Positions 6,801 to 50,689 of a stretch of 64,000 nucleotides of DNA are shown piece by piece. A program made the position numbers and the translations under genes. This DNA is from Limnohabitans sp. INBF002. Its GTDB lineage: Bacteria > Pseudomonadota > Gammaproteobacteria > Burkholderiales > Burkholderiaceae_C. Each line of letters begins with the position of its first letter. The stretch's first letter is position 1. The notes beneath the pieces were generated by a model. It made no database searches. It was not told the origin of the DNA and saw only the letters and a program-made list of their open reading frames with translations. The stretch is taken from NCBI RefSeq assembly GCF_027924905.1, contig NZ_AP027055.1, positions 434,001 through 498,000 of the forward strand, written 5' to 3'.

Positions 6801-7658
6801 AACTTGCAGAGCCAGTCTAAAAACGGCCTGACGGCTGAGTCTGTCAACGGCGTCAAGGTCAGCTACAACAGCGCCTCTAGCTCTTTAGAGTTCACCACCG
6901 GCACGGCCTCCACTGACTCGTACATCAAAGTCACCGGCGATGCACGTTGGGGCTTGGACGGTTTGGACGCTCAGTTCGGCACGACCACCACGTGGATCAA
7001 GCCCACCGCGTTCAAAGACGAAAAAGGCGCCACGGTCTACATCGACGGCTTCGGTGCCGAGTCATCGACCGCTACTGGCTTTGACACCTTGCCAGCCTGG
7101 TCTCCTGTTTACTTTGACAAAGGCGAGCTGACATTTGACACCGCGGGTAACTTGGTGTCACCCAAGCAAGGCGCGCAGTTGGACACGGTGTACTTGCCAA
7201 ACGGTAAGGGCGCTTTGACCATCAACATCGACTACTCCAAATCCACGCAGTTTGCGTCACCGTTCTCGGTGCTGTCGCAGTCGCAAGACGGCGCACCCGA
7301 AGGTGACTTGGTCGGTTTGGCGATTGCCGATGACGGCTTGGTTTCTGCCAGCTTCTCCAACGGCGCACAAAAGTCTTTGGGCAAAGTGGTGTTGGTCAAC
7401 TTCTCTAACCCGTCTGGCTTGCGTCAGATCGGTGACACCAACTACTACAAGACGTCTGACTCAGGCACACCGAAATACGGTGAAGCCGGTTCGGCTGGTT
7501 TCGGTACGGTGCGCTCAGGCGCGACCGAACGTGCCAACGTGGACTTGACCCAAGAATTGGTGGACTTGATCACCGAGCAGCGTAACTTCCAAGCCAACGC
7601 CAAGGCCATGGAAACCAGCACCTCGATGACGCAAACCATCATTCAGATCCGTAACTAA
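3849..7658 (+). CDS. flgE: FlgE, very large flagellar hook protein
   Basis: Hook subunit of 1269 aa against about 400 in E. coli. The N-terminus is canonical (SFYTSLTGLNAATAQLGVTS, NNIANVSTTGFKRSR), as is the C-terminal D0 segment (ELVDLITEQRNFQANAKAME to the end). Between about residues 290 and 1080 lies an insertion rich in Thr, Ser, Asn and Val, with several beta-rich segments resembling the Flagellin_IN modules of flagellins. The ends form the hook tube, so the insert should face outward and thicken or decorate the hook. An AGGAG precedes the ATG. There are no internal stops or frameshifts, so this is a true expansion. Confidence 0.95.
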   Translation: MSFYTSLTGLNAATAQLGVTSNNIANVSTTGFKRSRTDFGDIFATSPLQKASATIGQGVSLKRVVQEFGQGNMMFSSNTLDLAISGDGFFPLKSQDGFQDIFTRNGVFMMNDQYNVVNSAGQRLMAASVDSSGKANLDDMNVLTIPQKTTGMAKQTSKVSLGLNFPADAEVITKDFNRNDPDTYNKSTALTVYDAGGNSYLASVYYVKTQNASQETPNNKWQTYVYVGDKLVNASLQQATNTLGEDMYVNKYGELKAKSDFKTPEEIAELNSSFSKKTIKFSLDNLTDIRTSQPAAVTAGIATDLGTGSNDGVDFANYLNVSKSDLLRQQGSSAVTYPVDSTTVGARDITFGPAAARVTVNIPANGTTAPTLAEVVTALNNNSSFASTYVAQAASPTGTISSVNFGAASTPTNPFASFGVNVGGQQFDLTGLTSTLTSSTFAAELQTKLRAADGGRSDISVSLASGSLVVTDAAKRNITGMELTKISTAATDVSVGSEPVYGNTVLRITALDPNVTAAEINDTSTGVVVQQNSVTLTGSNQATPYTRAKVSYTFAGAPTVFKASFGPTSAPITVEGTSGTDLADNLNKNATFSADYVASYSGTALTLTAKDPSNANASSISGAVKLYSNTAAAPTTFTEINNPGTTAGTNNPVLANGVASILDTTKKSVDDLKNLFSVNIDNAIDPVIVGLDHLLESMSHLSTSQSKKLSGAQIADELTNVISRAYGDEKPFNFSTVGTPTFKLSLTKSNKTVLPDLPIDLSGSKDMRSEDLVREVQSQIDGNSQYSGLVDVTYDTQAQKLVFTPTDNAKVTVSSEQSAMDLSDPLVQGVNDSSVGLTLSPSVSTSPYRALNEQRYGMKVEYDSVKQTFVFKSGTTGDNSGIAITNIRPGSLATQTSKGLGMTGDPANYTVAPSTIDALRGITSKPAVLTGNPLAVNVDNNFSVDSTNNQFVVSVNGITGTVVVPPKDTYTLGTFMEALQNGINNLQSQSKNGLTAESVNGVKVSYNSASSSLEFTTGTASTDSYIKVTGDARWGLDGLDAQFGTTTTWIKPTAFKDEKGATVYIDGFGAESSTATGFDTLPAWSPVYFDKGELTFDTAGNLVSPKQGAQLDTVYLPNGKGALTINIDYSKSTQFASPFSVLSQSQDGAPEGDLVGLAIADDGLVSASFSNGAQKSLGKVVLVNFSNPSGLRQIGDTNYYKTSDSGTPKYGEAGSAGFGTVRSGATERANVDLTQELVDLITEQRNFQANAKAMETSTSMTQTIIQIRN

Positions 7659-29626: not shown

Positions 29627-32600
29627 ATGGCAGTTATCAATACCAACGTTAAAGCTTTGTTTTCGCAGATGGCTCTGAAGACCTCCGGTCTTGAGCAAAG
29701 CAAAGCAATGCAGCAATTGTCGACAGGCAAGCGAATCAACTCAGCGCGAGATGATGCCGCAGGCATGTCGATCGCAACACGCATGACACATCAGATTCGA
29801 AGTCTGAACCAAGCTGTGCGTAACGCAGGGGATGCTATTAGCCTGATCCAAACGGCTGAAGGTGCAACCAACGAAATCACGGACATGATGCAACGCATGC
29901 GTGAGTTGGCTGTGCAGGCTGTCAACGATACAAATAACAATGCTGACCGCAGTTATTTGGACTTGGAGTTTCAACAGCTGAAACAACAAATTGTTCAAAT
30001 TGCCGACAACACAGAGTGGAACGGTTTCCCTGTGCTGAACGGTAAAGCGGGCGAACAAGTTGGTGAGATGCCTGTGTACAAGGTCACTTCCGAAAACCAA
30101 TTCGGCAGTGTGTTCTTGAACCCCACAACCGCACGCAGCATGTCTGGTGCCGATGCGGGTGAGGTGCAAACATTCACGCTGTCTGGCACAACACCTGCAG
30201 TGGGAACCATGACGATTGCCGGTGTCGATGTTTCGATCACGGCTTCTGAAAATACGCTTGCACTGGCTTCTGCCAAGATTAAAACAACGCTGAACAATTC
30301 AGACTTGTTTACTTCCCGTGGCATGACTGCGGACGTGACATCCCTCGGGGTTGTCACCATCAATTTCAATCCTGCAGAAGGTGATGTACCAACATCTAAC
30401 GTGCTGGTGGGGTCGACAGGTTTGTCAGCCACTGCCGTGACAACTTCGCGCAAAGCTGCAACCCAATCTGTTGAGGTTTTCTCTGACAGTGGCGAGTACT
30501 TGAAAAGTGGCTCACTGCAATTCAGCGTGGCCTCTGGTGCAACCGCAGGCTCTGCAGTTGTCGCAACTTTCACGACTGCAGATAACCAAAAAATCACAAT
30601 GACGGGTTCATTGGTGACGCAAAGCCCAGCTGTCGTGAAGTTTGCAAAAGCAGACGGCTTGAACAGCTCTGTGATTTCAGGCGACCTGACCTACACACTG
30701 CAAGATGCCGATGGCGCTGGTTTGAACTTGGCTACGCGTGGCATCAGTATGAGTGTGGGTGTAGCCGGCAGTATTCCAACATTGCGTGATGGCGACTTGA
30801 CCATCAATGGTGTGAATATTGGCCCATCATCGTCGAGTGACGATGTGTTGTCCCCACGTAACAACGCGGCTGGCAGTGCCATCGCGAAGGCTGCCGCAAT
30901 TAACCGCATGGCCGTGGATCAAGGTATTTCACAAGGTGAGTCTCAATCGATCACTTTCAGCGGTTCGCCAATGCCCGGCACTATCACTGTGGGTGGTGTC
31001 AGCGTTGTATTGACCAATGATGACAGCACACCTGCATTAGCGGCTGCCAAGATTGCAGCTGCAATGCAAGCGAGCCCTCTTTACGACAGTACGACTGGAA
31101 TCAAGGTGGTTTACGCCACTGGCTCAGCAGTCATCAATGTCGATTTCCCATCTAAGGATGGCAATGTTCCTAAGTTAGAAGTGCTTCCAGGCACAACTGG
31201 AACAGGCAGCGTGGTCAACACCACCAAAGAATTCGCAACCAAGATGCCTGGCACGGGCGTGTTTGCCAAAGTCAACGAAAACATTTTCACTGGCCAAGCC
31301 ATGACGGCAGGTCCAGTGGCATCGGGTGTGGTGTTCATCAACGGTTACGCATCGGCTGACATCACAACTGTGTACAACAACTCGCAAGCTACACGTGCAA
31401 ACGTGGTGCGTGCCATTAACTTGATCAGTGATCGCACAGGTGTCAAAGCAATTGACAGTGGTTCTGATGCAAAAGGCGTGTCTCTGGTTGCTGCAGATGG
31501 CCGCAACATCGAAGTTCGTTTTGAAACATCGGCATCTACCAACTCACAGGCATTTGGTCAGCGCATTGGTATGGGTGAGGGCGTGCAAAGCTCGACCATT
31601 TCCTTGGAGTCAAAAATTCAAGCACCTGTGGTCTTAGGATCTGGTGCCGCTGGTGACATCACACGTGCTGGATTGGTTTCCGGTAACTACTCGAAGAATG
31701 AGTCTGTGCTGAACAGCCAATCTCGTGATCCGGTTAAGGCTGCTGTGGCTCAAGTGAGCAGCGTTAAGTTGACCGGCGCGGTGGGTACAACAGACACTGT
31801 TTCGGTGGTTGTGAACGGTACGACTTTTACATCTGTAGCGGCGGCCTCGAAAACACCACAAATTGTTTCCAGCGAACTGATCACTGCGATTAACCAAAAC
31901 AGTACTTTGGGTGTTTTTGCCACCAAAGGTAATGACATTGGCGAAATTTTGTTGACAGCCCGCACACCAGGTGTGGCCTTCACGATGACCACTGCGAAGA
32001 GTGCTGGTGCAACGGTCGGTGTTGCTGCAACTGATGTGACTGCAAATCAGCCTGCTCAATTCAAGAATTTGGGAATGGATGATCTAGAGATCAACGGCAT
32101 CAAAATTCGCCCCACCACACCAGCTGACGACAAGTTTTCAAATACCTTGGTGTCTAGCAGCGATCCGGCTTCTAGCGGCATCGCTTTGGCTGCTGCAATT
32201 AACGCCAGCACGAATTTGACGGGTGTCACGGCACAGGCTAATCCTGTGGTCAGTGAAGGCTCAATTACTAAAACGGGCACCCCCGAAAACGGCAAGCAGT
32301 CCGTTTGGGTCAACGGAATTGAAATTCAAGTTGATTTCGTCCAAAACGAAAGCGGCACAGACCGTCGCGCAAAAGTTGTTGCTGCGATCAATGAGCGTGT
32401 CGGCCAACACGGTGTCACTGCGACCGATAACGGTAAAGGTGTGACATTGTCGACAGACGGTCGTAACTTGTCTGTTTGGTATGACTCCAGCAAGGACGAG
32501 TTGTCTGCAGCCAGCTTTGGTTTGGACAAAGGCGGCGCTGTTGCTCAAATATCGAAGATCAAAGTGGCTGGTGCAGGCGTTGCTGCCACTGAGACTGCTT

Positions 32601-33622
32601 CGGTCTACATCAATGGTGTGAAGGTTGAAACAGCAGCCTTGGGAGCAACCGCGACTGAGGCGGCCACAACAGCTGCGCTGGTCTTGGCGATCAATAACAA
32701 CACGTCTTTGAAGAACGTGACTGCGAAACTGGATCCTTCTGACTCAACGAACACCAGTATTTTGATTACCTCGAATGTGGCTGGTAGTGGATTTGATTTG
32801 CGTGCTCCTGCCGTGACAGCGGGTAGCGGACAAACATTGACTCTCAGCACAGTTGCTGCCAACTCCCAAGGTGCCACTGATGCTTCAGCGGTTGACATGA
32901 CTGCAGCTTACTTGACCAATGTGTTGGGTAGTGCCACAGCGCCTGTCAGTGTGATGAACATCAAAACCATTTACGGTACGGTTCGCCTGACTGCGGATGC
33001 ACCTGTGTTGCCAGCGATGCCAGGCCCAGATGGCTTGCCACCCAACATGATGAACATCACAGGACGTCCAATTCAGATTCGCAGTGGTGCGGATGGTTTT
33101 GGTAGCTTGAGTAATTTCTCTGCATTAGGCTTTAGCGAGGGCAGCTTCGGCGGTCGTGCAAGTGAAGACATGGATCCTCCACGCGTCGGTCGCATGGCAT
33201 TCCAAGTTGGCTCAAGCGCTAACCAAGTGATCACGATTGATTTGGCTGATTTCGGCAAGAACGGTTCGATCACAGGTCAAATTACCAGCGACGTCGATCT
33301 GGCTGAAGAAGCTCGAAGTGTGCGTATCAACAGCCGTGAGGGGGCTACAGCTGTCCTCAACTTGTTGGATACGTCCATGGACAAGATCAACGCCACACGC
33401 GCCACCATGGGTGCGGTGATGAACCGCCTCGACCACGTGATCAACAACTTGACCAACGTGTCGATGAACATGTCTGCGTCGCGCAGCCAGATTGAAGATG
33501 CCGATTACGCGGCAGCTTCGACCGAGTTGGCCAAGACACAGATCATGCAGCAAGCCGCTACCGCGGTGCTGGCGCAAGCCAACACCAGCCAGCAGTCGGT
33601 GATGAAGCTCTTGGGCGGTTAA
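29627..33622 (+). CDS. giant flagellin (1331 aa) with duplicated internal modules
   Basis: Second flagellin. Both ends are canonical: VINTNVKALFSQMALKTSGL, STGKRINSARDDAAGMSIAT and, at the C-terminus, VMNRLDHVINNLTNVSMNMS to QQSVMKLLGG. The central ~1050 residues are a mosaic of repeated beta-rich modules: D at about 179-281 and 438-540, A at about 388 and 817 (DLTINGVNI / DLEINGIKI), B at about 569-634 and 892-955 (both with AIN, GV and DGRN motifs), C at about 706-811 and 971-1085 (VAQVSSVKL / VAQISKIKV). Giant flagellins that make thick filaments are known from some marine gammaproteobacteria. An AGGAG precedes the ATG. Sigma-54 type promoter, unlike fliC. Confidence 0.95.
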   Translation: MAVINTNVKALFSQMALKTSGLEQSKAMQQLSTGKRINSARDDAAGMSIATRMTHQIRSLNQAVRNAGDAISLIQTAEGATNEITDMMQRMRELAVQAVNDTNNNADRSYLDLEFQQLKQQIVQIADNTEWNGFPVLNGKAGEQVGEMPVYKVTSENQFGSVFLNPTTARSMSGADAGEVQTFTLSGTTPAVGTMTIAGVDVSITASENTLALASAKIKTTLNNSDLFTSRGMTADVTSLGVVTINFNPAEGDVPTSNVLVGSTGLSATAVTTSRKAATQSVEVFSDSGEYLKSGSLQFSVASGATAGSAVVATFTTADNQKITMTGSLVTQSPAVVKFAKADGLNSSVISGDLTYTLQDADGAGLNLATRGISMSVGVAGSIPTLRDGDLTINGVNIGPSSSSDDVLSPRNNAAGSAIAKAAAINRMAVDQGISQGESQSITFSGSPMPGTITVGGVSVVLTNDDSTPALAAAKIAAAMQASPLYDSTTGIKVVYATGSAVINVDFPSKDGNVPKLEVLPGTTGTGSVVNTTKEFATKMPGTGVFAKVNENIFTGQAMTAGPVASGVVFINGYASADITTVYNNSQATRANVVRAINLISDRTGVKAIDSGSDAKGVSLVAADGRNIEVRFETSASTNSQAFGQRIGMGEGVQSSTISLESKIQAPVVLGSGAAGDITRAGLVSGNYSKNESVLNSQSRDPVKAAVAQVSSVKLTGAVGTTDTVSVVVNGTTFTSVAAASKTPQIVSSELITAINQNSTLGVFATKGNDIGEILLTARTPGVAFTMTTAKSAGATVGVAATDVTANQPAQFKNLGMDDLEINGIKIRPTTPADDKFSNTLVSSSDPASSGIALAAAINASTNLTGVTAQANPVVSEGSITKTGTPENGKQSVWVNGIEIQVDFVQNESGTDRRAKVVAAINERVGQHGVTATDNGKGVTLSTDGRNLSVWYDSSKDELSAASFGLDKGGAVAQISKIKVAGAGVAATETASVYINGVKVETAALGATATEAATTAALVLAINNNTSLKNVTAKLDPSDSTNTSILITSNVAGSGFDLRAPAVTAGSGQTLTLSTVAANSQGATDASAVDMTAAYLTNVLGSATAPVSVMNIKTIYGTVRLTADAPVLPAMPGPDGLPPNMMNITGRPIQIRSGADGFGSLSNFSALGFSEGSFGGRASEDMDPPRVGRMAFQVGSSANQVITIDLADFGKNGSITGQITSDVDLAEEARSVRINSREGATAVLNLLDTSMDKINATRATMGAVMNRLDHVINNLTNVSMNMSASRSQIEDADYAAASTELAKTQIMQQAATAVLAQANTSQQSVMKLLGG

Positions 33623-35881: not shown

Positions 35882-38038
35882 ATGGCAACCGATACCTTAA
35901 ACATGAACGCTGTGGGCATGCCCGTAGCCAACGGCGTAGACAACGCTTCAGCTTCCAATGCGAATGGTGCTGCGTCAGGCGACGCATCACGCATGCCCGC
36001 ATGGATCAACGCCAAAGAAGGCCCCGGCGCTGTGGTGATGGACGTGTTGCGTCAACCCAGTGTGCGCAAGGTCTTGCCCTTTGTGGTGATCTTCATGCTG
36101 CTGATGTCGGTGGCTGTGTTCTTCACCTCGATGAAGCCCACGCCTTACCGTCCTTTGGTGTTGATGCTCAACGATGCGGACAAGCAGTTGGCCATCGAAG
36201 CCTTGAAGACCGGCGAATACAAGCCAGAGGTGGACGCCAACACTGGCCAAATCTCTGTGCCCACCAACCGTTACCAAGAAGCCCGCATGTTGCTGGCTTC
36301 CAAAGGTTTGCCACGCACCGAAGCTTCGGGCATGGACAACCTCAAAGACATGCCCGCCATGACCACCAGCCAGTTCATGGAGCAGGTGCGCTACAACAAC
36401 GCGATGGAGCAAGAACTCGCACGCAGCATTGTGCAAATCGGCGGCATTAAATCAGCCCGCGTGCATTTGGCAGCGCCCAAGCAAAGCGTGTTTGTGCGTG
36501 ACCGTGCACCCACCAAGGCGTCGGTCATCATCACGCGTTTGCCTGGCCGCACCATCTCGTCGGCCAACGTGCAAGCCATCATTCAGTTGGTGGCGTCTAG
36601 CGTGCCTTACCTCGCACCTGAAAACGTGTCGGTGGTTGACAACTTTGGCAGCTTGATGAACGACATGTTGACGGAAGCGCCTTTGGGCTTGACCGCACAG
36701 CAGCTCACCCACAAGCAGCAGATGGAAGACCTCTACCGCACCCGTTTGATTCAGTTGCTGGCTCCCATCGTGGGCGAAACCAACGTGACGGCTCAGGTGA
36801 GTATGAGCTTGGACTTCACACAAACCGAAGTTACCAACGAAGAGTTTGATGGCCAAGACAAAGGTCCCAAGACACGTTCTGAATTGTTTGTGGAAGACCG
36901 CAACACGTTCCGTGATGCGATTGGTATTCCTGGCTCCTTGTCCAACACGCCGCCAGCACCGACCAACCCACAAGCCACCACGCAAACCAACGCCGACCCC
37001 TTGAAGGGTGTGAGCGAAAAAGGCGTGCAAGTGACAGCCCGTAGCACCAAAAACTACGAACTCGACCGCGCCGTGCGTCACACCAAAGGTGCCATGGGCA
37101 CGATCACCAAGATTGGTGTGGGTGTGTTGATCAACGAACGTCCTGTGGCGCCGGGTGCCAAGGTCGAAAAGAACGCCGATGGTTCTACCCCAACCTCAGT
37201 GCCTTACACCCCAGAAGAAATCGAACGCTTGAACCAATTGGTCAAAGGCGCTGTCGGTTTCAACAACGACCGTGGTGACGTGGTCACCGTGGTGGGCACC
37301 AAGTTTGAGCCTCAGTACGACCCAACTGTCATCCCTTGGTACCGTGACGAGAACTACCAAGTCATGGTCAACGCCGGTGTGGTCGGTGGCATCTTCTTGC
37401 TCATCCTCTTGACCGTGGTTCGTCCGATGGTGCGCCGCTTGTTGGCCCCCGAGATCGATCCCAAAGCTTTGGCCGCTGCGGCTGCCGATGCCGCCACCTC
37501 CCAAGCGCAAATGGCGATTGATGTGGCCACCGCTGAGAACGCTGCCGCACAAGCTGCCGCTGCGCACGCCAAGCGATCACACGAAGGCGAGATGCTGCGT
37601 ATTTCCGAAGAGGCCATCCGTGCCGCCGAAGAGTCCGCACGTTTGGCCCAAAACGCTACCCGTACTGCTGAAGAAGCTCGCCTTGCCGCAGAAGCCAAAG
37701 CGCTTGCCGATGCGCAAGCGGCTGAAGAAGAACGACTGCGTCAAGCCGAACTGTTGGCCGAACAACAAGCCCAAGCCACCGCTTTGGCTGAACAAGTCGC
37801 TCAAACAGAAGCCGCTGCCCAAGAAGAAGCAACGGATGACATTGAAATTGAAGAAGGCGAAACGCTGGAAGAGGTGAAAGCCCGCATGGCCAGCATGAAG
37901 CCTAAGAAACAGTCAATCTCTGCCGACTTGCTCAACACAGCCAATTCGTATGACGATAAAGTGGCGTTGATTCGCATGATCATGGCTGAGGACTCCACCC
38001 GCGTGGCGGGTGTGCTCAAGAGCTTGATCGAGAAGTAA
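35882..38038 (+). CDS. fliF: FliF, MS-ring protein with long cytoplasmic coiled-coil insert
   Basis: 718 aa, against about 550 in E. coli. TM1 is near residues 63-85 and TM2 near 495-517 (GVVGGIFLLILLTVVRPMVR). The periplasmic ring-building motifs are normal (YKPEVDANTGQISVPTNRYQ, AMEQELARSIVQIGGIKSAR, VHLAAPKQSVFVRDRAPTKA). After TM2, about 125 residues rich in Ala, Glu and Gln (527-650) form a probable long coiled coil before the FliG-binding end (IEIEEGETLEEVKARM, LLNTANSYDDKVALIRMIMA). The insert would lengthen or stiffen the link between membrane ring and switch. The last 65 residues are copied in the gene at 40494. Confidence 0.96.
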   Translation: MATDTLNMNAVGMPVANGVDNASASNANGAASGDASRMPAWINAKEGPGAVVMDVLRQPSVRKVLPFVVIFMLLMSVAVFFTSMKPTPYRPLVLMLNDADKQLAIEALKTGEYKPEVDANTGQISVPTNRYQEARMLLASKGLPRTEASGMDNLKDMPAMTTSQFMEQVRYNNAMEQELARSIVQIGGIKSARVHLAAPKQSVFVRDRAPTKASVIITRLPGRTISSANVQAIIQLVASSVPYLAPENVSVVDNFGSLMNDMLTEAPLGLTAQQLTHKQQMEDLYRTRLIQLLAPIVGETNVTAQVSMSLDFTQTEVTNEEFDGQDKGPKTRSELFVEDRNTFRDAIGIPGSLSNTPPAPTNPQATTQTNADPLKGVSEKGVQVTARSTKNYELDRAVRHTKGAMGTITKIGVGVLINERPVAPGAKVEKNADGSTPTSVPYTPEEIERLNQLVKGAVGFNNDRGDVVTVVGTKFEPQYDPTVIPWYRDENYQVMVNAGVVGGIFLLILLTVVRPMVRRLLAPEIDPKALAAAAADAATSQAQMAIDVATAENAAAQAAAAHAKRSHEGEMLRISEEAIRAAEESARLAQNATRTAEEARLAAEAKALADAQAAEEERLRQAELLAEQQAQATALAEQVAQTEAAAQEEATDDIEIEEGETLEEVKARMASMKPKKQSISADLLNTANSYDDKVALIRMIMAEDSTRVAGVLKSLIEK

Positions 38039-38061: not shown

Positions 38062-39096
38062 ATGGCTGACGACACCATTGTGATGACCGACAAACTGCGT
38101 GCTGAGCTCGCAGGCATTACCAGCACCCAACGTGCTGCCGTTTTGATGCTGTTGCTCGGCGAAGAGCAAGCGGCAGAAATCATCAAATACCTGAGCCCCA
38201 AAGAGGTCCAAGCGCTGGGCGCTGCGATGGTGCAAGTGGCCAACTTCTCACAAGAAGCGGTCAACTATGTGCTCGACGAATTTGTGGACCATTTAAAGAA
38301 CCAAAACAACGTCAGCATCGGCGGCGCCGACTATGTTGAAAAAGTCATGCGCCTCGCCTTGGGTGACGACAAAGCCGCCTCTGTGTTGGGCCGCATCATG
38401 CCGGGCCAAGGCACCAAAGGTTTGGACATCTTGTCGTGGATGGATGCCCGTGGCATTGCCGACATGATCCGTGGCGAACACCCACAAGTCGTGGCCATCA
38501 TCTTGTCGCTCTTAGAGAGCGAAGTGGCCGCTGACGTTTTGAACTATTTGCCACCCGACACCCGTGCCGAGGTGATTCAACGCGTGGCCAGTTTGGACAC
38601 CGTGCAGCCCTCTGCCATGGCCGAACTCGAAGCCATCATGAAGCAGCAGTTCTCCAAGAACGCATCGGCCCAGTCGTCGAGCTTTGGTGGCATTCAAGCC
38701 GCAGCCAAGATCATGAACTTGACCAAGACGGCGCTGGAAGCCAGCATCATGAACGGCTTGAACGACATTGATCCGGACCTGATGCTCAAGATTCAGGACA
38801 ACATGTTCACCTTCGAAAACTTGGTCAGCGTGGACAACAAAGGTATCCAGGTGCTCATGCGTGCGGTGGAGCCAGACATGTTGATGATGGCCTTGAAAAA
38901 TGCCAGCGAACCTTGCCAAGCCCGTTTCTTCGACAACATGTCCGAACGTGCGCGCGGTATGTTCCGCGACGACATGGAAGCCAAAGGCCCGCAACGCATG
39001 GCCGACGTGGAAGACGCGCAAAAGCAGATCATGCGCAAAGCGCGTAAGTTGTCCGATTCGGGTGAATTGATCTTGGGCGGCGCAGACTTTGTTTAA
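38062..39096 (+). CDS. fliG: FliG, motor switch protein
   Basis: 344 aa, slightly longer than E. coli (331). Builds the rotor ring that contacts the stator. N-terminal FliF-binding domain (TQRAAVLMLLLGEEQAAEII), middle EHPQ motif (MIRGEHPQVVAIILSLLESE), and C-terminal torque domain (MFTFENLVSVDNKGIQVLMR). fliH overlaps its last 8 bases. Two potential membrane anchors for its N-domain are encoded nearby, FliF and the FliF-like protein. Confidence 0.97.
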   Translation: MADDTIVMTDKLRAELAGITSTQRAAVLMLLLGEEQAAEIIKYLSPKEVQALGAAMVQVANFSQEAVNYVLDEFVDHLKNQNNVSIGGADYVEKVMRLALGDDKAASVLGRIMPGQGTKGLDILSWMDARGIADMIRGEHPQVVAIILSLLESEVAADVLNYLPPDTRAEVIQRVASLDTVQPSAMAELEAIMKQQFSKNASAQSSSFGGIQAAAKIMNLTKTALEASIMNGLNDIDPDLMLKIQDNMFTFENLVSVDNKGIQVLMRAVEPDMLMMALKNASEPCQARFFDNMSERARGMFRDDMEAKGPQRMADVEDAQKQIMRKARKLSDSGELILGGADFV

Positions 39097-40507
39097 TCAA
39101 CCCCATCCCGTTCGGGCTGACGTTCCCTGGCAGCCCAATGCCGGCATCGCAGAAAAACTGAGCAGCCGTGGCTATGCCACGACCAGCTGGACCAGCGATG
39201 AACCGGAAACGTTTGCCGACCTTGGCTACCCAGCCAAGTCCAGCGGGTTCTCGGCGGCGCATTACCAACCGATGCGCCAACCTTTGTCCAAGCAAGCCCA
39301 AGCTTCGCTCGCGCTCTTAGAGGGCGAGTACCGCAACGAGGCATTGGGCGAAGAAAAACCTGCATCTCACACGGGCTCAGAAACCAACGAGCATTTGCCG
39401 TTTGTCATGGATTCATTCGGCGCGACACGCAAATCTAAACTGCGTGTCAACGTGGACGCCTCTGTGTTGCAACGTGCGTTGGCACAAGCAGAATTGGCCG
39501 AGACCTTGGTGGTCAGCCCCATCACGTCCGACGAGAAAGTGGCAGACCCGATCGTGATTCATCCCGATGTGGCAGATGCGGCAACACCTGAGTCATTGAG
39601 TGCAGAGACCGCTGCCACGGAAAACACAGACGCTATAGATGCTGTAGATGCAGCGCTCGAAGTTGAGGCTGCTGCTGAAGCACAAGAAGCTGAGGCCGTT
39701 GAACTAGCTGAAGCCATTGAACCCATAGAGCCCGAACTGCCAGCGGTGGTGGGCGGTATTCCCCCTGAAGAAGTCGCGCAGCGCGAGGCTGAACAATTTG
39801 CCAAGGGCTTGGCCCAAGCGCAAGAAGAAGCTGCGGCGCAGCTGGCCGCGGCGGTGGAACAAGCCATGGCCGAAGGTTTGGCCAAAGGGCTGGAACAAGG
39901 CAAAGCCGAAGGTCTGTCGGAAGGTTTGCAGCAAGGCTTAGAACAGGGTTTGGCACAGGGCAAAGAACAAGGTCTGGCCGAGGGCGAGCAAACAGCGCGT
40001 ACCGCGGTGGCCGAAGAAATGGCCGCGCAACGTGTGTTGTTTGAAAACGCATCGACCGAACTGGGCGCGCTGATTGCAGACCCCAAGAAATTTTTTGAGC
40101 CACTCAAACGCCTCGCCCTGCACATTGCCGAGCAAGTGGTGGTGGGTGAGCTGCAAACGTCCAGCAAGGCAATGGAGCGCTTGGTGCAGCGTTGCTTGGA
40201 TGAGTTGGATCACCCAGTGCATGGCGCGGTGGTGTTGGAACTCAACCCCGCAGACAAAGCCCGCTTGCAAGAGCACAGTGCCGACTTCATCAAAGGCATG
40301 CGTCTTGAAGCTGTGCATGACATGCAACCCGGCAGTGTGCGCGTGTTTGCCAATGACACTGTGATCGAAGATTTGGTGTCGCACCGCCTTGAAAGCTTGG
40401 CGCATGCCTTGTTGGTCGATGTGCCTGCGTGGCGCGAAAAGTCGCCTCTGGCGCAACCCCTTTTAGAAGTTCAAGAAGAAGCGGAGGACAGCGATGTTCA
40501 TTCCTGA
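39089..40507 (+). CDS. fliH: FliH, large export-ATPase regulator
   Basis: 472 aa, twice the E. coli size. The TTG start at 39089 overlaps fliG by 8 bases and is the least certain point. Residues about 160-250 are Ala/Glu-rich. About 261-303 is a run of GxxxG repeats (EGLAKGLEQGKAEGLSEGLQ), a FliH hallmark that forms packed helices. The C-terminal domain (KRLALHIAEQVVVGELQTSS, VVLELNPADKARLQEH) is the VATPase-E-like part that binds FliI and FliN. It overlaps the next gene by 14 bases. Confidence 0.92.
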   Translation: MFNQPHPVRADVPWQPNAGIAEKLSSRGYATTSWTSDEPETFADLGYPAKSSGFSAAHYQPMRQPLSKQAQASLALLEGEYRNEALGEEKPASHTGSETNEHLPFVMDSFGATRKSKLRVNVDASVLQRALAQAELAETLVVSPITSDEKVADPIVIHPDVADAATPESLSAETAATENTDAIDAVDAALEVEAAAEAQEAEAVELAEAIEPIEPELPAVVGGIPPEEVAQREAEQFAKGLAQAQEEAAAQLAAAVEQAMAEGLAKGLEQGKAEGLSEGLQQGLEQGLAQGKEQGLAEGEQTARTAVAEEMAAQRVLFENASTELGALIADPKKFFEPLKRLALHIAEQVVVGELQTSSKAMERLVQRCLDELDHPVHGAVVLELNPADKARLQEHSADFIKGMRLEAVHDMQPGSVRVFANDTVIEDLVSHRLESLAHALLVDVPAWREKSPLAQPLLEVQEEAEDSDVHS

Positions 40508-41162
40508 CGTCATCAACACCTTGTTGATGGGTTTGATTTTCATGGTCGTGATTGTGACCATCGTGCGCCCGTTTGTGCTCAACATGGTGGGCCAAGTCGC
40601 CTCCAACAGCGAGATGCAAAAAGCAGCCGTTGCTGCGGTTGAGCGCGAGATGATTCGCAAGGCCGAACTGTTTGAAGCCCAACGTGCGGACAAAATCAAA
40701 TACCAAATGTTGCTTTTGGAAAAGCCTGAAAAGCCAAGGCCAAAACCTGTGTTCGAAACCGAGCCCGAGCCCGAGGTGGTGCCCGAGCCCGTGGTGGCTG
40801 TTGAGCCCGAGGTGGTGGCCCAAGAGCCCGTGACGGCAGAAGTGGCTGAAGCCCCTGTGGACCAAGCGCCTGCTGAAGCGGCCTTGGTTGAAGGCCACGC
40901 AAGCGCCGAAGCGCCAGCGGCTGAACCCGAAGAAGAAGCGATGGCGGAAGGTGAGATTGAAATTCGCGAAGGCGAAACTTTGGCTGAAATCAAAGACCGC
41001 ATTCGCAAAGAACAACAGAAGGCCAAAAAGCCCACCATTCCGCCAGAGTTGCTCAACAGCGCCAACAGCTACGAAGACAAAGTGGGCGTGGTCCGCATGG
41101 TGGTGCAAGCCGACCAAGGCCGTGTGGCCGCTGCGATTCGCGGCATGATTGAAGTGAAATAA
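40494..41162 (+). CDS. stand-alone paralogue of the FliF C-terminus: one TM helix plus FliG-binding-like tail
   Basis: 222 aa. One N-terminal membrane helix (INTLLMGLIFMVVIVTIVRP, about 8-29) resembles FliF TM2, with the same RP after it. A helical stretch and a Pro/Glu/Val-rich acidic linker (about 75-155) follow. The last ~68 residues align to the FliG-binding end of FliF at roughly half identity (EIREGETLAEIKDRI, ELLNSANSYEDKVGVVRMVV). There are no ring-building motifs. It sits between fliH and fliI, overlapping fliH by 14 bases and ending 8 bases before fliI, so it is co-expressed with the basal body. I infer a membrane tether for FliG or the export gate. No characterised flagellar protein of this shape is known to me. 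Confidence 0.85.
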   Translation: MFIPDVINTLLMGLIFMVVIVTIVRPFVLNMVGQVASNSEMQKAAVAAVEREMIRKAELFEAQRADKIKYQMLLLEKPEKPRPKPVFETEPEPEVVPEPVVAVEPEVVAQEPVTAEVAEAPVDQAPAEAALVEGHASAEAPAAEPEEEAMAEGEIEIREGETLAEIKDRIRKEQQKAKKPTIPPELLNSANSYEDKVGVVRMVVQADQGRVAAAIRGMIEVK

Positions 41163-41170
41163 ACAAACCC

Positions 41171-42490
41171 ATGCTCGACTTTGCCAAAGAAGTTCAGATC
41201 AGCTTGCCCAAGCTGCGCAGCCCCGAGCCGCAACGCAGCGGCACCTTGGTGCGCTTGGTCGGCCTGACACTGGAGACGCGCGGCATCATGGCCCCCTTGG
41301 GGGCTTGCTGCGAAGTGATGGGCAAAGAGGGTCACCGCGTCGAAGCCGAGGTGGTGGGTTTCAACGACAAAACCTTGTACCTCATGCCGTTCACCGACCC
41401 CGTCGGTGTGGGCCCTGGCGACACGGTGCGCATCATGTCTAACTCTGGGCAAGTGCGTTTGGGTAATGAATTGTTGGGTCGCGTGATTGACGGTCGTGGT
41501 GTGCCCATTGATGGCAAGCCCATGCCGCATTTGCCTGACCAACTCAGCCTGTTGGGCTGCCCGCTCAACCCGATGGAGCGTGGTCCGATTGAAGAAGTGT
41601 TGGATGTGGGCGTCAAAGCCATCAACGGCGCTTTGACCATTGGCCGTGGCCAACGCATTGGTTTGGTGGCCGGTTCTGGTGTGGGTAAGAGCGTGCTTTT
41701 GGGCATGTTGACGCGCTTCACCAAAGCCGACATCGTCGTGATTGGTTTGATTGGTGAACGCGGCCGCGAAGTGCAGGCGTTCATTTCTGAATCCTTGGGT
41801 GCAGAAGGCTTGGCCAAATCGGTGGTCATCGCAGCACCTGCCAACGTGTCACCGGTGCTGCGCCTCAAAGCCACGCACATGACGCACGTGATTGCAGAGT
41901 ATTTCCGCGACCAAGGTAAAAACGTGTTGATGCTGTGCGACAGCTTGACCCGTGTGGCCCATGCGCAGCGCGAAATTGGCTTGGCCATTGGTGAGCCACC
42001 AACGGCCAAAGGCTATCCACCCTCGGTGTTCGCCTTGTTGCCCAACTTGATTGAACGGGGTGGTGTGGGTCGTCATGGTCACGGTTCCATCACTTCCATT
42101 TACACCGTGCTCGCCGAAGGCGATGACGCGTCAGATCCGATTGTGGACATCGCGCGTGCGTCGCTCGATGGTCAAGTCATGTTGTCGCGTCGCTTGGCCG
42201 ACCAAGCGCATTACCCCGCGATTGATTTGAACGGTTCCATTTCGCGTGTCATGCAATCTTTGGTCAGCCCCGAGGAGTTGAAGCAATCTAACAAGCTGCG
42301 CCGCTTGTGGTCGGTCTACCAACAAAACGCAGACTTGGTGCAAGTGGGGGCCTACGAAGCGGGCTCGAACCCCGAGCTGGACGAGGCCATCCGCTTGCGT
42401 GAGCCAATCTTGGACTTCTTGCGCCAAGACATGGACAAAGGCCAAGACTACGCCATGACGCGTAACCAACTGAGCCACATGCTGTCATGA
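41171..42490 (+). CDS. fliI: FliI, flagellar export ATPase
   Basis: 439 aa, normal. Powers release and unfolding of export substrates. Walker A in GLVAGSGVGKSVLLGMLTRF (P-loop near residue 166-173), family motifs VVIGLIGERGREVQAFISES and LLCDSLTRVAHAQREIGLAI, and the C-terminal RLREPILDFLRQDMDKG. fliJ overlaps its stop by 4 bases. Confidence 0.98.
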   Translation: MLDFAKEVQISLPKLRSPEPQRSGTLVRLVGLTLETRGIMAPLGACCEVMGKEGHRVEAEVVGFNDKTLYLMPFTDPVGVGPGDTVRIMSNSGQVRLGNELLGRVIDGRGVPIDGKPMPHLPDQLSLLGCPLNPMERGPIEEVLDVGVKAINGALTIGRGQRIGLVAGSGVGKSVLLGMLTRFTKADIVVIGLIGERGREVQAFISESLGAEGLAKSVVIAAPANVSPVLRLKATHMTHVIAEYFRDQGKNVLMLCDSLTRVAHAQREIGLAIGEPPTAKGYPPSVFALLPNLIERGGVGRHGHGSITSIYTVLAEGDDASDPIVDIARASLDGQVMLSRRLADQAHYPAIDLNGSISRVMQSLVSPEELKQSNKLRRLWSVYQQNADLVQVGAYEAGSNPELDEAIRLREPILDFLRQDMDKGQDYAMTRNQLSHMLS

Positions 42491-43682: not shown

Positions 43683-44075
43683 TTAGCAAACCAAGCGCAT
43701 GATTTTGAAGATGGGGGTCTCAGGTGGCACCGGCTCGAAAGGGCCAATCACGCCTTCGGTCGACAAGGCGTCCCCACTCAAGCGCACGCCCGTGTGATAC
43801 GACAGCGACAACGTGCGCACGGTTTGTTCTTTGCAGTTGAACTCCATTTGCATGCGGGTGGACTTGAAGTTCTTGCCTGTGGGGGCATGCACTTTGGGTT
43901 CGCGGTAGTCCAGCATGGTCCACGCTTTGTGGTTCTCACCGGCGTGCGTGATGTTGTCGGTGTCCACATAGAACGTGCCGATGTCAAACAACCCAATCGC
44001 CGTCCATTGCGCGGCGAGCGTGAGGTTGCTGGTGAGCACGAGGCTGGCAAGGAGGAGGGCTTTGAGGTGGTGCAT
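43683..44075 (-). CDS. secreted protein, surface-adhesin E-like
   Basis: 130 aa from ATG 44075. The first ~22 residues (HHLKALLLASLVLTSNLTLA) are a clear Sec signal peptide. The rest resembles the small 'surface-adhesin protein E' type proteins: WTAIGLFDIGTFYVDTDNI, then a single Cys in MEFNCKEQTVRTLSLSYH. Probably periplasmic or surface-exposed. Its 5' end is back-to-back with the fliO promoter region. Function unknown. Confidence 0.75.
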   Translation of the reverse strand: MHHLKALLLASLVLTSNLTLAAQWTAIGLFDIGTFYVDTDNITHAGENHKAWTMLDYREPKVHAPTGKNFKSTRMQMEFNCKEQTVRTLSLSYHTGVRLSGDALSTEGVIGPFEPVPPETPIFKIMRLVC

Positions 44076-44101
44076 GAAATAACTATACCGTGCCAAGAAG
44101 C

Positions 44102-44117
44102 TGGCACGTGCCTTGCA
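44102..44117 (+). promoter_or_regulatory. sigma-54 promoter of fliOPQR-flhB
   Basis: TGGCACGTGCCTTGCA, an exact -24/-12 consensus, 63 bases before the fliO ATG and within the 104-base gap to the divergent gene. It makes fliOPQR-flhB an operon separate from fliEFGHIJ. Confidence 0.87.
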
Positions 44118-44179
44118 ATACCCCTAGAGATAGGCACGTCCAGTGTCAAAAAACCGTCATCGCGCACAGGAAAAACATC

Positions 44180-44452
44180 ATGCAAAGTTTCGATTGGGGT
44201 CAGTTCATCGCCAGCACATTCAGTGTGTTGCTGCTGCTGTGCGGCGCCCTGTGGTGGGTCAAGCGTAACCGCGGCTTTTCCGCTAATGGCATGGATGACA
44301 AACGCATTCAAGTGCTCGAGGCTTTGCCCCTGAGCCTCAAACACAAGATGGTGTTGATTCAAGTCGACAACCAAATGGTGCTGGCCAGTGTCAGCCCTGC
44401 CGAGGTGAAAACCTTGCACGCGTGGACACAGGAGGCCAGCCATGCTGCGTAA
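44180..44452 (+). CDS. fliO: FliO, export-gate assembly protein
   Basis: 90 aa from ATG 44180, preceded by AGG. One N-terminal membrane helix (FIASTFSVLLLLCGALWWVK) and the short cytosolic FliO domain (KRIQVLEALPLSLKHKMVLI, VDNQMVLASVSPAEVKTL). Helps FliP assemble. Overlaps fliP by 11 bases. Confidence 0.93.
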   Translation: MQSFDWGQFIASTFSVLLLLCGALWWVKRNRGFSANGMDDKRIQVLEALPLSLKHKMVLIQVDNQMVLASVSPAEVKTLHAWTQEASHAA

Positions 44453-47442: not shown

Positions 47443-48975
47443 ATGACAGACATCTACCAAAGCCCCGGTGACCGGTTGCGATTTGAAATACTCCTGAAGT
47501 CATTGACCGAAGGCAGTATCAATCTCGCCGTGTTGAGTGACCACGATAGGGTGCTTGACTACTACGGCAGCTTGTTTGAAGAGCGTCTGCGTGCCAAAGG
47601 TGAAAACCACATCGAGTGGTGCAGCTCGACCAACTCTGAACGTCTGGTTCAAAAGTTCAACGAAATCCTGTCTGAAATCACGCTGGACCAAGCGCTGGAG
47701 AAAGACAAAAAGCACGCGCCGCGTCGCTTCTTGGTGTTCCGCGATTCCATCTTGATGCAAGACTTTGAGCTGCAACTCTTGGCGCGTTTGGTCAATGGTT
47801 TTCCAGCGGGCAACATCAGCGTGATTTTGCTCATCAACAGTGCTGGCAACCACCAAGGCAAGCTCGATGCCTTTGGCAAGAATTTGCTGAAATGGGACGT
47901 CGAAACCGAAGCCGGCGAACCCAAAAAACAACTCACCGATTGGGTCGCCACCACACCCGATCCTGAACCCACGTTGATTGAACCTTCCTTCTTGCCCGAG
48001 CCACCCACGCTCAGCGATGAAGTGATCCCCGTTTCAAAGCTGCTCAACCTCCCCACCAAAACCGCTTGGCGCGTGCCCGGCTTTGGCAAAAAGCAAGAGC
48101 CCCAGTTGGATGCAGAGCCGTTGCCCGCTTTTGTGCCAACGCCATTGCCTGTGCCGCCAACGCCGCCAGCGATGCCGGACAGCTCACGCGAACCCGCACT
48201 GACCACGCCTGCCCCCTTGGCTGCAGCGGCACCTGCGGCGACAGACGCTGACCTTTTCAAACGCCCTGTGCGCCGCTCGCGCGCGGGTTGGGTGCTGTTG
48301 GTGTTGCTCATGTCCATGGCCGCGTTTGGCTTCATGTACAAAGACTTGGTGCTTGAAGAGGCCGAGCTGCTGAAAAAATATTTGCTACGCGGCACCCCCG
48401 CTGTCGCCGCGCCTGATGAGGCCGCCAGCGCTGCGGCAGCCGCTGCTGCTGCAAGTGCCGAGGCTTTGGCCGCTGCCCAGCTCGCCGCCTCGGTGGCGAA
48501 TGAAGCCGCACGCGTTGCCAGCCAAGCCGAGGAGATGGCTTCTGCCGCCAGTGCGACCGCATCGGTGGCTGCACCCGTGGCGGTGACCGCATCAGCCCCT
48601 GCGCCTGCTGCATCGGCTGAACCTAAGACATCAAAACCCACTGAAAAAGTCGTCGAAAAAGCAGAGGCCAAGCCAGACGCCAATTCAGATGAAGCTTGGG
48701 TCAAGCAACTGCCCGCCAACGGCTATGTGGTGCAGCTGGCGGCGATGGATACGACAGAAGACATGCGTAGCTTCCAGCGCAGCAATGCCGCCTATGCCAA
48801 GGCCCGCATCATGCGTGCGCGCCACAAAGACACGGGCAAGCGCTATGTCATTTTGGTGGCTGGGCCTTTTGAAACCAAGGCTCAAGCCGATGCTTTCATG
48901 CAGTCCAGCCCGTTGCTGGCCAAAGGTTGGTTGCGCAGCACCAAGTCAATGCAAACCCAATTCACAAAGCCCTGA
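47443..48975 (+). CDS. DamX-like protein: cytosolic domain, TM helix, SPOR domain
   Basis: 510 aa. Residues 1-165 are a globular cytosolic domain (LAVLSDHDRVLDYYGSLFEE, FLVFRDSILMQDFELQLLAR) that may be a degenerate AAA-type domain, since no Walker A is seen. A Pro-rich linker, one membrane helix at about 282-302, then a long Ala-rich periplasmic stretch. The C-terminus (about 428-505) is a SPOR domain (GYVVQLAAMDTTEDMRSFQR, KRYVILVAGPFETKAQADAF) that binds denuded peptidoglycan. The layout resembles DamX. It follows flhB by 19 bases, so it may position flagella or report on the septum or pole. Confidence 0.8.
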   Translation: MTDIYQSPGDRLRFEILLKSLTEGSINLAVLSDHDRVLDYYGSLFEERLRAKGENHIEWCSSTNSERLVQKFNEILSEITLDQALEKDKKHAPRRFLVFRDSILMQDFELQLLARLVNGFPAGNISVILLINSAGNHQGKLDAFGKNLLKWDVETEAGEPKKQLTDWVATTPDPEPTLIEPSFLPEPPTLSDEVIPVSKLLNLPTKTAWRVPGFGKKQEPQLDAEPLPAFVPTPLPVPPTPPAMPDSSREPALTTPAPLAAAAPAATDADLFKRPVRRSRAGWVLLVLLMSMAAFGFMYKDLVLEEAELLKKYLLRGTPAVAAPDEAASAAAAAAAASAEALAAAQLAASVANEAARVASQAEEMASAASATASVAAPVAVTASAPAPAASAEPKTSKPTEKVVEKAEAKPDANSDEAWVKQLPANGYVVQLAAMDTTEDMRSFQRSNAAYAKARIMRARHKDTGKRYVILVAGPFETKAQADAFMQSSPLLAKGWLRSTKSMQTQFTKP

Positions 48976-48998
48976 CGCGCACGCTAGGAACGAGCCTT

Positions 48999-49430
48999 AT
49001 GAGCCAAGAACACGATAAAAGTATTCATTCTGAATCTGCTCCTTTTGAGCCCAGTTATCAGGTTGATTCGTTGCCCAAGATTTCGGTGCCCGATTTGCCA
49101 GACGACGCCGAAGGCCTGACCGCCGAAGCCTTGGCACAAGTGCCAACACTGACCGACCAAGTTGACGAGGCGCCGGGCAAAGACCTGGTGGACGGTGCGC
49201 CGGCGCCACGGGTGATGCCAGTGGTTCAGCCCGTGGATTCGACCCCCGACGCGGCCATGGCCGACGAGCCGGCCAGTCCAGCGCCTTCAGAACCCCCTCA
49301 AGACACGCCAGTTCAAGCCGATACATGGGTTGAAGAGCTGCACGTTCGCATGGGCAAGCTCACAGACGACATTCAAACACTCAATGTCCGGCTAGACCGA
49401 CTTGATGAACAAAATAAGGCAAAGGCTTGA
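48999..49430 (+). CDS. acidic, largely disordered protein with C-terminal coiled coil
   Basis: 143 aa from ATG 48999 with an upstream AGGAACG. The first ~105 residues are rich in Asp, Glu, Pro and Ala with no clear fold. The last ~35 (DTWVEELHVRMGKLTDDIQT, LNVRLDRLDEQNKAKA) form a short amphipathic coiled coil. No signal peptide or membrane helix. It lies between two membrane coiled-coil proteins with 23-base and 2-base gaps, suggesting a shared complex. No family recognised. Confidence 0.75.
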   Translation: MSQEHDKSIHSESAPFEPSYQVDSLPKISVPDLPDDAEGLTAEALAQVPTLTDQVDEAPGKDLVDGAPAPRVMPVVQPVDSTPDAAMADEPASPAPSEPPQDTPVQADTWVEELHVRMGKLTDDIQTLNVRLDRLDEQNKAKA

Positions 49431-49432
49431 AC

Positions 49433-50689
49433 ATGGCTGAAGAACAAAACACCACGGAAGATGCGGCAGCGCCTGCCGAAGCCATCGTTGATGTCGAGAC
49501 AACGGCTGATCGTTTGACCGAAATTGCTTCGCAATCGCTGGACACCAGCGAGGTGGCACGTCAGATTGAAGAGTTGACATCGGTGGTGCTTGACTCCGCC
49601 GAGGTGTCGACACGTTCTGCATCCATTGCGGCCGACGTGAGCGCCACCATGCGCGCTGTGGTGTCCAAGATTCAAGAGAACAACCGCCGCAACGTGATGC
49701 ATTCGCGCATCATGCTGGGCGCTTTTTGCGCGTGTTTGCTGATTGCCATGGGTGTGTTCTTTGCCATCACCTTGAAGATGACCAAATCCATCAAAGAGCT
49801 CGACACCATGGTGTATGCCATGGCCAAGCGGGTGATTGAGGTGGATGCCAGCCTGACGGCCATTGGCAAAACCAACTCTGATTTTTCTGAAATTACTGAA
49901 AAACAAGAAGAAGTCATCACCACCCAAACCCAAGTGGCCAAACGCTTGGAAGAGATTGGCAAGAGCATGGCCGCCATGCCAGCAGTGGTGGCGGTGGAAG
50001 CCAACAAGTCCAGCGACCTCAAGTTCAAAGACATGCAAAAGCAGTTGACGGGTTTGGAGAGCAAGCTTCAGTCGTTTGACTCCAAGTTGCAGTCGGTGGC
50101 CGAGAAAGCATCTTCACGCGCACCAGCCCCTGCACCGGCTGCGTCGCAAGGCCCCAGCACACAAGTGTTGCTGACCGAAATTCAAAAAATTAAGTCTGAC
50201 TTGAATGCCGCGGTGCAAGTGCGTGAACGCACGCAAACCGCAGCAGAAGCGACTGCGATCAAGAACATCGAGAAAACCGTAGACAAAGCAGCTGCGGCTG
50301 CAGGCGATGCACAGAAAGCGGCTGACAAAGCCGCCCAATCTGCCAAGGCCGCGGCTGATGCACAAAAGGCCGCTGCTGCGTCCGAGAAGGCCTCTGCGGC
50401 TGAGCGTTTGGCGCAACAAAAAGCAGCCGCTGAGCGTGCGGTGGCCATGCGCATGCAGCCTGAGAAGCCAGAAAAGTCAGCCGAGCAAATCGCTGCTGAA
50501 CGTGCGGCCGCTGAAAGAGCTGCTGCCGCCCGTGCTGCCAAAGCTGCAGCCGACAAGGCTGCCGCAGACAAAGCCGCTGCCGCTGAACGTGCGGCTGAGA
50601 AAGCCCGCGCTGCTTCAGCTGCTGCCGCTGCGACTCAACCCGTCATCGTTCGCGAGAAGCCCATTCAATACCCACGCGCCGCGGATTGA
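49433..50689 (+). CDS. membrane-anchored Ala/Lys-rich coiled-coil protein
   Basis: 418 aa. The ATG at 49433 follows AAGG. Residues 1-92 are a cytosolic helical part, a membrane helix is at about 93-115 (IMLGAFCACLLIAMGVFFAI), followed by predicted coiled coil (EKQEEVITTQTQVAKRLEEI, LTGLESKLQSFDSKLQSVAE) and a long Ala/Lys/Glu-rich helical repeat region to about residue 400. TolA-like in composition but without a recognisable TolA C-terminal domain. It ends 8 bases before a convergent gene and marks the end of the flagellar island. Function unknown. Confidence 0.78.
   Translation: MAEEQNTTEDAAAPAEAIVDVETTADRLTEIASQSLDTSEVARQIEELTSVVLDSAEVSTRSASIAADVSATMRAVVSKIQENNRRNVMHSRIMLGAFCACLLIAMGVFFAITLKMTKSIKELDTMVYAMAKRVIEVDASLTAIGKTNSDFSEITEKQEEVITTQTQVAKRLEEIGKSMAAMPAVVAVEANKSSDLKFKDMQKQLTGLESKLQSFDSKLQSVAEKASSRAPAPAPAASQGPSTQVLLTEIQKIKSDLNAAVQVRERTQTAAEATAIKNIEKTVDKAAAAAGDAQKAADKAAQSAKAAADAQKAAAASEKASAAERLAQQKAAAERAVAMRMQPEKPEKSAEQIAAERAAAERAAAARAAKAAADKAAADKAAAAERAAEKARAASAAAAATQPVIVREKPIQYPRAAD

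What the first reader, a model, noticed from the sequence alone, without database searches (positions are those of the whole stretch)
40494..41162. A free-standing FliF C-terminus: a second membrane tether for FliG?
The 222-aa protein between fliH and fliI has one membrane helix like FliF TM2, a long acidic Pro/Glu/Val linker, and a tail about half identical over ~68 residues to the FliG-binding end of FliF (EGETL, LLN-ANSY-DKV, RM, RVA). It lacks all ring-building parts. It could hold FliG outside the MS ring, fill vacant FliG sites, or anchor the FliH/FliI export ATPase to the membrane. It is in frame, tightly packed in the operon and so likely expressed.
Basis: partly seen in the sequence, partly recalled or inferred. 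Interest (0 to 1): 0.88.

Follow-up and report, generated by a model that had tools for sequence, protein, structure and literature searches.

The report
Free-standing FliF tail protein
A freshwater bacterium carries, beside its normal flagellar ring protein FliF, a small extra membrane protein that keeps only FliF's last membrane helix and the tail that should grip the rotor protein FliG, so its motor may have a second kind of membrane tether.

Summary
ORF 40494-41162 (222 aa) is a real, selected gene between fliH and fliI: a truncated FliF paralogue made of FliF TM2 (profile E 4e-8), a disordered linker, and a tail identical in 34 of 68 residues to the same genome's FliF end (0 of 2000 shuffles). 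It has no ring-building domain and no named family. In its genus (which includes Limnohabitans sp. Jir61) it is present in 64 of 64 genomes with this FliG, of 84 searched. The same tail ends other free-standing membrane proteins in 18 genomes of three other families of the order, with different membrane parts and gene positions; more than one birth is likely. What is shared is the tail, not the fliH/fliI position. Best reading: an extra membrane-anchored docking tail for FliG at the MS/C-ring junction; the FliG contact is inferred by homology, not shown. Systems with a free tail tend to have longer FliF linkers, which hints at a rotor whose FliG sites outnumber or outreach the FliF tails. Eight literature searches listed no description.

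The parts
40494..41162 (+). ORF X, 222 aa, free-standing FliF TM2-linker-tail protein between fliH and fliI
   Evidence: in all 65 loci with fliI examined (loci chosen for an X match; fliH seen in 63) it ends 2-43 nt before fliI
40483..40487 (+). GGAGG, ribosome-binding-like, 6 nt before the ATG, inside fliH
   Evidence: read
40509..40565 (+). single membrane helix (residues 6-24), homologous to FliF TM2, followed by the RP motif
   Evidence: helix 3-75 in the model
40752..40943 (+). acidic Pro/Glu/Val/Ala linker (residues 87-150), disordered in the model, fast-evolving
   Evidence: (pLDDT below 50)
40944..41159 (+). tail (residues 151-222), homologous to the FliG-binding C-terminus of FliF; helices 163-178, 184-189, 193-221 in the model
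35882..38038 (+). fliF, full length with ring domains, and its own tail
37361..37417 (+). FliF TM2 (residues 494-512), the segment homologous to the ORF's N-terminus
37829..38035 (+). FliF tail (residues 650-718), the segment homologous to the ORF's C-terminus
38062..39096 (+). fliG, the only FliG match in this genome; expected partner of both tails
39089..40507 (+). fliH (TTG start as listed, not checked), overlapping the ORF
41171..42490 (+). fliI

Best explanation
The ORF encodes a membrane-anchored second docking tail for FliG. Shown: it is homologous to FliF from TM2 onward and lacks the rest, it is kept under purifying selection, and it was found in every genome of the genus in which this FliG was found. 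[quoted passage not shown] Inferred further, with less certainty: it acts in the rotor at the MS/C-ring junction, holding FliG subunits that no FliF tail occupies (or sharing them with FliF), so that the C ring is fastened to the membrane by more than the MS ring alone. Related bacteria have the same tail on other membrane proteins, which fits a general docking module for FliG. My step estimates: real and selected gene 0.97; truncated FliF paralogue 0.97; tail binds FliG-N 0.7; works in the assembled rotor 0.45.
For: TM2 and tail homology. The X-tail profile finds canonical gammaproteobacterial FliF tails: 15 of 25 entries examined pass HMMER's inclusion threshold, profile-profile probability 93%, one also at E 2e-4 in a whole-genome search; FliG lies beside all 24 of these canonical loci. 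In published structures the FliF C-terminus wraps FliG domain 1 (PMC11087270, passages). Genus: X, as a match in a short open frame, in 70 of 71 matched genomes and in 64 of 64 with FliG; the 13 genomes with no X or FliF match have no FliG match. One FliG match in the own genome, so both tails face the same partner. Same tail on other free-standing membrane proteins in 18 genomes of three other families. FliF linker from the RP motif to the tail's YDDK-type motif: 66-83 residues in 9 of 11 measured genomes where no free tail was found, 88-165 in 11 measured genomes of other families with one, 127-184 in 33 FliFs of the genus. Purifying selection.
Against: No FliG complex was modelled or measured. 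Eight family genomes with this FliF type, 2 of 5 in family f47, 1 of 15 in f18 (G831) and one of two in f19 (G900) have no free tail that the search found, so this rotor type does not need it as such. G900 and G831 have long FliF linkers (100 and 119) without a free tail found, though both are incomplete (70%, 86%). The linker contrast (one-sided p 2e-4) treats related genomes as independent. X and FliF linker lengths do not correlate genome by genome (29 pairs, rho 0.25, p 0.19). The E. coli FliF tail is not found by the profiles. The four Limnohabitans type strains compared in PMC3031073 are recorded as non-motile (passage). The model is poor overall (pLDDT 69, pTM 0.27).
Confidence: 0.47

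Rival explanations
1. Off-ring FliG holder: the protein captures FliG at the membrane before or away from the MS ring, as an assembly factor, a cap against premature FliG polymerisation, or a recruiter to the assembly site, and is displaced by FliF.
For: Same tail homology; overlap with fliH and tight operon suit an early assembly role; FlhF is a published case of a protein that holds FliG ahead of FliF, though at FliG's M and C domains (PMC11236974, passages); free tails on membrane proteins away from the flagellar operon in family f18.
Against: A displaced competitor might be expected to have a weaker or drifting tail; the X tail is nearly as constrained as FliF's (0.08 against 0.05). It keeps FliF's TM2 and a similar linker length, which a mere holder would not need.
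Confidence: 0.25
2. Export anchor: the protein ties the FliH/FliI ATPase to the membrane near the export gate.
For: Position directly before fliI in 65 of 65 loci of the genus group examined, behind fliH in the 63 where fliH is on the locus (loci chosen for an X match).
Against: The tail is a FliF tail, and no FliH- or FliI-like part was found; the counterparts in families f47, f18 and f19 lie between fliF and fliG or away from fliH and fliI.
Confidence: 0.07
3. The tail binds some partner other than FliG (for example another FliF-tail protein or a polar factor), in FliF as well as in X.
For: FliG binding of this lineage's tail has not been shown; the stretch before the last 34 or so residues, conserved in this lineage, did not align with the canonical tails.
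Against: The last 34 or so residues align with canonical FliF tails whose genes sit next to fliG.
Confidence: 0.12
4. Relic: a partial fliF duplicate without a function.
For: It is a truncated FliF paralogue; type strains of the genus are recorded as non-motile.
Against: dN/dS 0.07-0.08 outside the linker; found in 64 of 64 FliG-bearing genomes of the genus, with no stop inside the matches, down to about 27-30% identity.
Confidence: 0.02

Closest known systems
FliF (flagellar MS-ring protein; PF01514, PF08345, TIGR00206)
   Same: Homologous TM2, similar linker length, homologous tail.
   Different: No TM1 and no periplasmic ring-building domains, so it should not form an MS ring; 222 aa against 718.
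FlgV of Campylobacterota (PMC10655999, abstract and passages read)
   Same: Works like it in outline: small inner-membrane accessory protein, reported as a ring close to the MS/C-ring junction and to interact with FliF.
   Different: FlgV is described with two membrane helices and a GFFxG motif; X has one helix and the motif is in none of 48 X rows. The passages read claim no FliF-tail homology for FlgV; I did not compare the sequences.
FlhF, FliG-interacting domain (PMC11236974, abstract and passages read)
   Same: A protein other than FliF that tethers FliG before C-ring completion.
   Different: An SRP-type GTPase, binds FliG's M and C domains, and lets FliG still bind FliF.
FliO
   Same: Small flagellar-operon membrane protein with a cytoplasmic tail (recalled).
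   Different: A separate FliO gene is present at 44090-44452 (PF04347); X has no match to it.

Membership tests
FliF | YscJ/FliF and FliF_C ring-building domains | tested here: not met
   No such Pfam or NCBIfam match in X; found in the window's FliF
FliF | Second membrane helix with RP motif | tested here: met
   Profile E 4.4e-8; hhalign probability 98%
FliF | C-terminal tail homologous to other FliF tails | tested here: met
   34 of 68 identical; 0 of 2000 shuffles; 15 of 25 canonical entries found
[quoted passage not shown]
   No multi-chain modelling or binding assay
FlgV | Two membrane helices and a GFFxG motif (as described in PMC10655999, passages) | tested here: not met
   One helix; motif in 0 of 48 X rows
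FlgV | Ring at the MS/C-ring junction | not testable with these tools
   Needs cryo-ET
FliO | FliO domain PF04347 | tested here: not met
   No match in X; FliO is another gene
free-standing FliF-tail proteins (group proposed here) | FliF-type tail at the C-terminus of a membrane protein that lacks ring-building domains | tested here: met
   X and proteins in three other families; Pfam was run on X and on five of the others, with no ring domain

The most novel reading that the evidence does not exclude
The FliF tail is a portable FliG-docking module. In one flagellar lineage of Burkholderiales it has been copied several times onto different inner-membrane proteins, which hang extra components on the rotor or fasten FliG subunits that the MS ring cannot reach; C-ring size would then not be tied to the number of FliF subunits.
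Probability: 0.35. Interest if true: 0.88.

Novelty: new variant of a known kind. Interest (0 to 1): 0.75.

Why it matters
FliF is taken to be the membrane attachment of FliG, and how MS-ring and C-ring numbers are matched is still discussed (one published motor was interpreted as 33 FliF with 34 FliG; PMC11087270, passages). A natural protein that keeps only the membrane helix and the FliG-docking tail gives a direct genetic handle on that question and points to a new class of rotor accessory to look for.

Tried and rejected
Pairwise TM2 comparison alone was not convincing enough (1 of 2000 shuffles as good); the profile test replaced it. The same TM2 profile does not find the membrane helix of the f47 free-tail protein (S_G635, E 7.5), so a TM2 origin is shown for this genus only. 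Solved-structure searches with the FliF tail and with alignment A1 gave only matches I take for chance, so no FliF-FliG complex was reached by sequence. Pfam, NCBIfam and PHROGs gave only sub-threshold or weak matches for X. E. coli FliF was too distant for the tail profiles. Two of the 24 loci (L174, L196) were read in a wrong frame by my script and stayed in the canonical set as noise. The tail tree has few columns and an unsettled bootstrap; I use it only for X being one side of a branch (all of 200 bootstrap trees; branch support 72/100) and for the other free tails needing at least two changes by starred branches. X-to-FliF linker correlation was tested and not found. A free tail of canonical type in other flagellar lineages would have been missed: the profile did not reach the FliF tails of most other family genomes either. 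No fold search was run on the low-confidence model.

Literature: the listings of full-text searches showed no title or abstract start about a free-standing FliF tail; most listed papers were not opened. One search was for motility of the genus. Only PubMed Central papers under open licences are held. Two papers on FliF-FliG crystal structures are not held and are known to me only through citations and recall.

Full report
What is there. The ORF at 40494-41162 (+) is as described: 222 aa, ATG to stop, overlapping fliH by 14 nt and ending 8 nt before fliI. It lies in a large flagellar region. Family searches confirm fliF, G, H, I, J, O, flgE, flgK and two flagellins; other gene names here are from gene order and recall. 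I did not check for fliL, fliM or fliN.

It is a truncated FliF paralogue. The tail aligns with the window's own FliF at 34 of 68 identical pairs, score 164 against a maximum of 53 in 2000 shuffles. The N-terminal helix is FliF TM2: a profile from 36 of 39 FliF frames collected (three lost to the motif filter) hits X at E 4.4e-8, while the other window frames of 60 aa or more, FliF apart, have E 0.97 or worse; profile to profile, probability 98%. No ring domain and no family above a cut-off is found. The AlphaFold model, made from 15 sequences, has a helix at 3-75, a disordered stretch 87-150, and tail helices 163-178, 184-189 and 193-221; overall confidence is poor (pLDDT 69, pTM 0.27), local confidence in the helical ten-residue blocks is 77-93.

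It is kept. Over 12 near relatives (the window's genome among them) the median dN/dS is 0.07 for residues 1-34, 0.08 for 35-84, 0.20 for the linker (dS saturated) and 0.08 for the tail, against 0.05 for the FliF tail in 8 loci. A scan of named genomes gave 15 loci, titled Limnohabitans sp. Jir61, Comamonadaceae, Burkholderiales or Betaproteobacteria; 14 have fliH-X-fliI and one (L031) starts inside X. In the genus, 71 of 84 genomes match; 70 of these have X as a match in a short open frame (120-326 aa, some at contig ends) and one (G322, 73% complete) has FliF alone (counted). FliG is found in 64 of 84, all of which have X; six genomes have X without a FliG match, and the 13 genomes with neither X nor FliF match have no FliG match. 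Placement directly before fliI was checked in 65 loci, all chosen for an X match, giving 48 different proteins among the 63 with fliH. X falls to 27-30% identity to the window's copy and keeps the RP motif after the helix (KP in some rows), and P.EL, D, RVA and MI in the tail. The genus name is inferred from G080 and L023 (Jir61) being the same contig place.

Where it is not. With a single-sequence query 14 of 299 family genomes match, with a 28-sequence profile 12 of 299. In both, only the four genus members have the small protein; the rest are FliF tails or, for two genomes, weak matches outside the tail proper. G037's match lies in an 84-aa frame at a contig start followed by fliG, so I take it for a cut FliF. 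Eight genomes of four other genera share this FliF type; FliI is 72-78% identical to the window's in the four of them searched, against roughly 40-57% for other genomes with a flagellar FliI, so this is a separate flagellar lineage. No X match lies between fliH and fliI in the six of these eight genomes whose region could be read.

The wider finding. The X profile over 349 genomes of the order gave 10 matches, seven of them with a free-standing tail outside the genus. Reading the DNA around them and in their families gives five architectures. (1) This genus: one helix, fliH-fliI. (2) Family f47: one helix, 127-178 aa by the starts taken, directly between fliF and fliG, in 3 of the 5 matched genomes of 60. 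(3) Family f18, genus g158: four helices (a fifth, borderline, in G522), 255-438 aa, away from the flagellar operon, with an Adhesin_E-like gene near by in 4 of 7 by tblastn. (4) Family f18, genus g261: two helices, 258-262 aa, beside a conserved 198-205 aa membrane protein in 7 of 7; PDG-rich repeats in the three read in full. (5) One f19 genome: one helix, 283 aa, beside homologues of window genes 47443 and 49427. In f18, 15 of 26 genomes match: 9 with free tail and FliF, 5 with the free tail only (70-92% complete), one (G831) with FliF only. So 18 genomes outside the genus have a free tail: 14 in f18, 3 in f47, 1 in f19. Tail profiles of FliF and of X find the free tails of the other families at E 5e-11 to 3e-32 (Z set to 1000, seven proteins). 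In the tail tree X is one side of a branch in all of 200 bootstrap trees (branch support 72/100), while the other free tails need at least two changes by starred branches: those of g261 group with g261 FliFs (96/97), and two of the three f47 ones lie with f47 FliFs (92/76, not starred), the third unresolved. Columns are few and the bootstrap unsettled, so more than one birth is likely but the number is open.

What the tail does. The X-tail profile finds FliF tails of other members of the class: 15 of 25 entries pass the inclusion threshold; E. coli does not, and two entries were misread frames. One was also found in a whole-genome search at E 2e-4. FliG lies on all 24 of these loci beside the FliF match. 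In published structures the FliF C-terminus (514-560 in Salmonella) wraps FliG domain 1 (PMC11087270, passages). The own genome has one FliG match, so X and FliF should share it. This makes FliG docking likely but not shown.

Rotor or not. FliF's linker, measured from the TM2 RP motif to the YDDK-type motif of the tail, is 66-83 residues in 9 of 11 measured genomes where no free tail was found (the other two, 100 and 119, are incomplete), 88-165 in 11 measured genomes of other families with a free tail, and 127-184 in 33 FliFs of the genus (G480, G037 and G617, among others, could not be measured); one-sided Mann-Whitney p 2e-4 for the first two groups, not corrected for kinship. X's own linker by the same measure is 132-178. 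A longer reach plus extra anchors is what a C ring wider than its MS ring would need; this is my inference. Against it, the two linkers do not correlate genome by genome (29 pairs, rho 0.25, p 0.19), and described Limnohabitans type strains are recorded as non-motile (PMC3031073, passage).

Comparison. FlgV of Helicobacter is the nearest in kind that I know: a small membrane protein reported to form a ring close to the MS/C-ring junction (PMC10655999, abstract and passages). X differs in having one helix and a FliF tail. FlhF holds FliG by other domains (PMC11236974, abstract and passages). The listings showed no description of a free FliF tail.

Noticed in passing
L147:5836-6624 and 6628-7224 (-); also L149, L151, L166, L169, L170, L171: Two-helix FliF-tail protein outside the flagellar operon, in these seven loci beside a conserved 198-205 aa membrane protein with no family above a cut-off; homologues of that partner also lie on L145 and L210 with the four-helix type.
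   Followed up: partly
window 43683-44096 (-): Adhesin_E family gene (PF16747) inside the flagellar region; homologues lie near free FliF-tail genes in families f18 and f19.
   Followed up: partly
window 47443-50689 (+): Three uncharacterised genes after flhB, one with a SPOR domain; homologues of two of them lie beside the free-tail gene of L152.
   Followed up: partly
window 29627-33622 and 19309-21408 (+): Two flagellins, one of 1331 aa with a very long middle part; FlgE-like and FlgK-like proteins are also very long (1269 and 1297 aa).
   Followed up: no
L113-L118 versus L119-L142: A distinct flagellar lineage within the family: FliI 72-100% identical in five genera, roughly 40-57% in other genomes with a flagellar FliI.
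   Followed up: partly
L208 and L209 (genome G900): One genome with two flagellar clusters, one of this lineage and one less alike.
   Followed up: no
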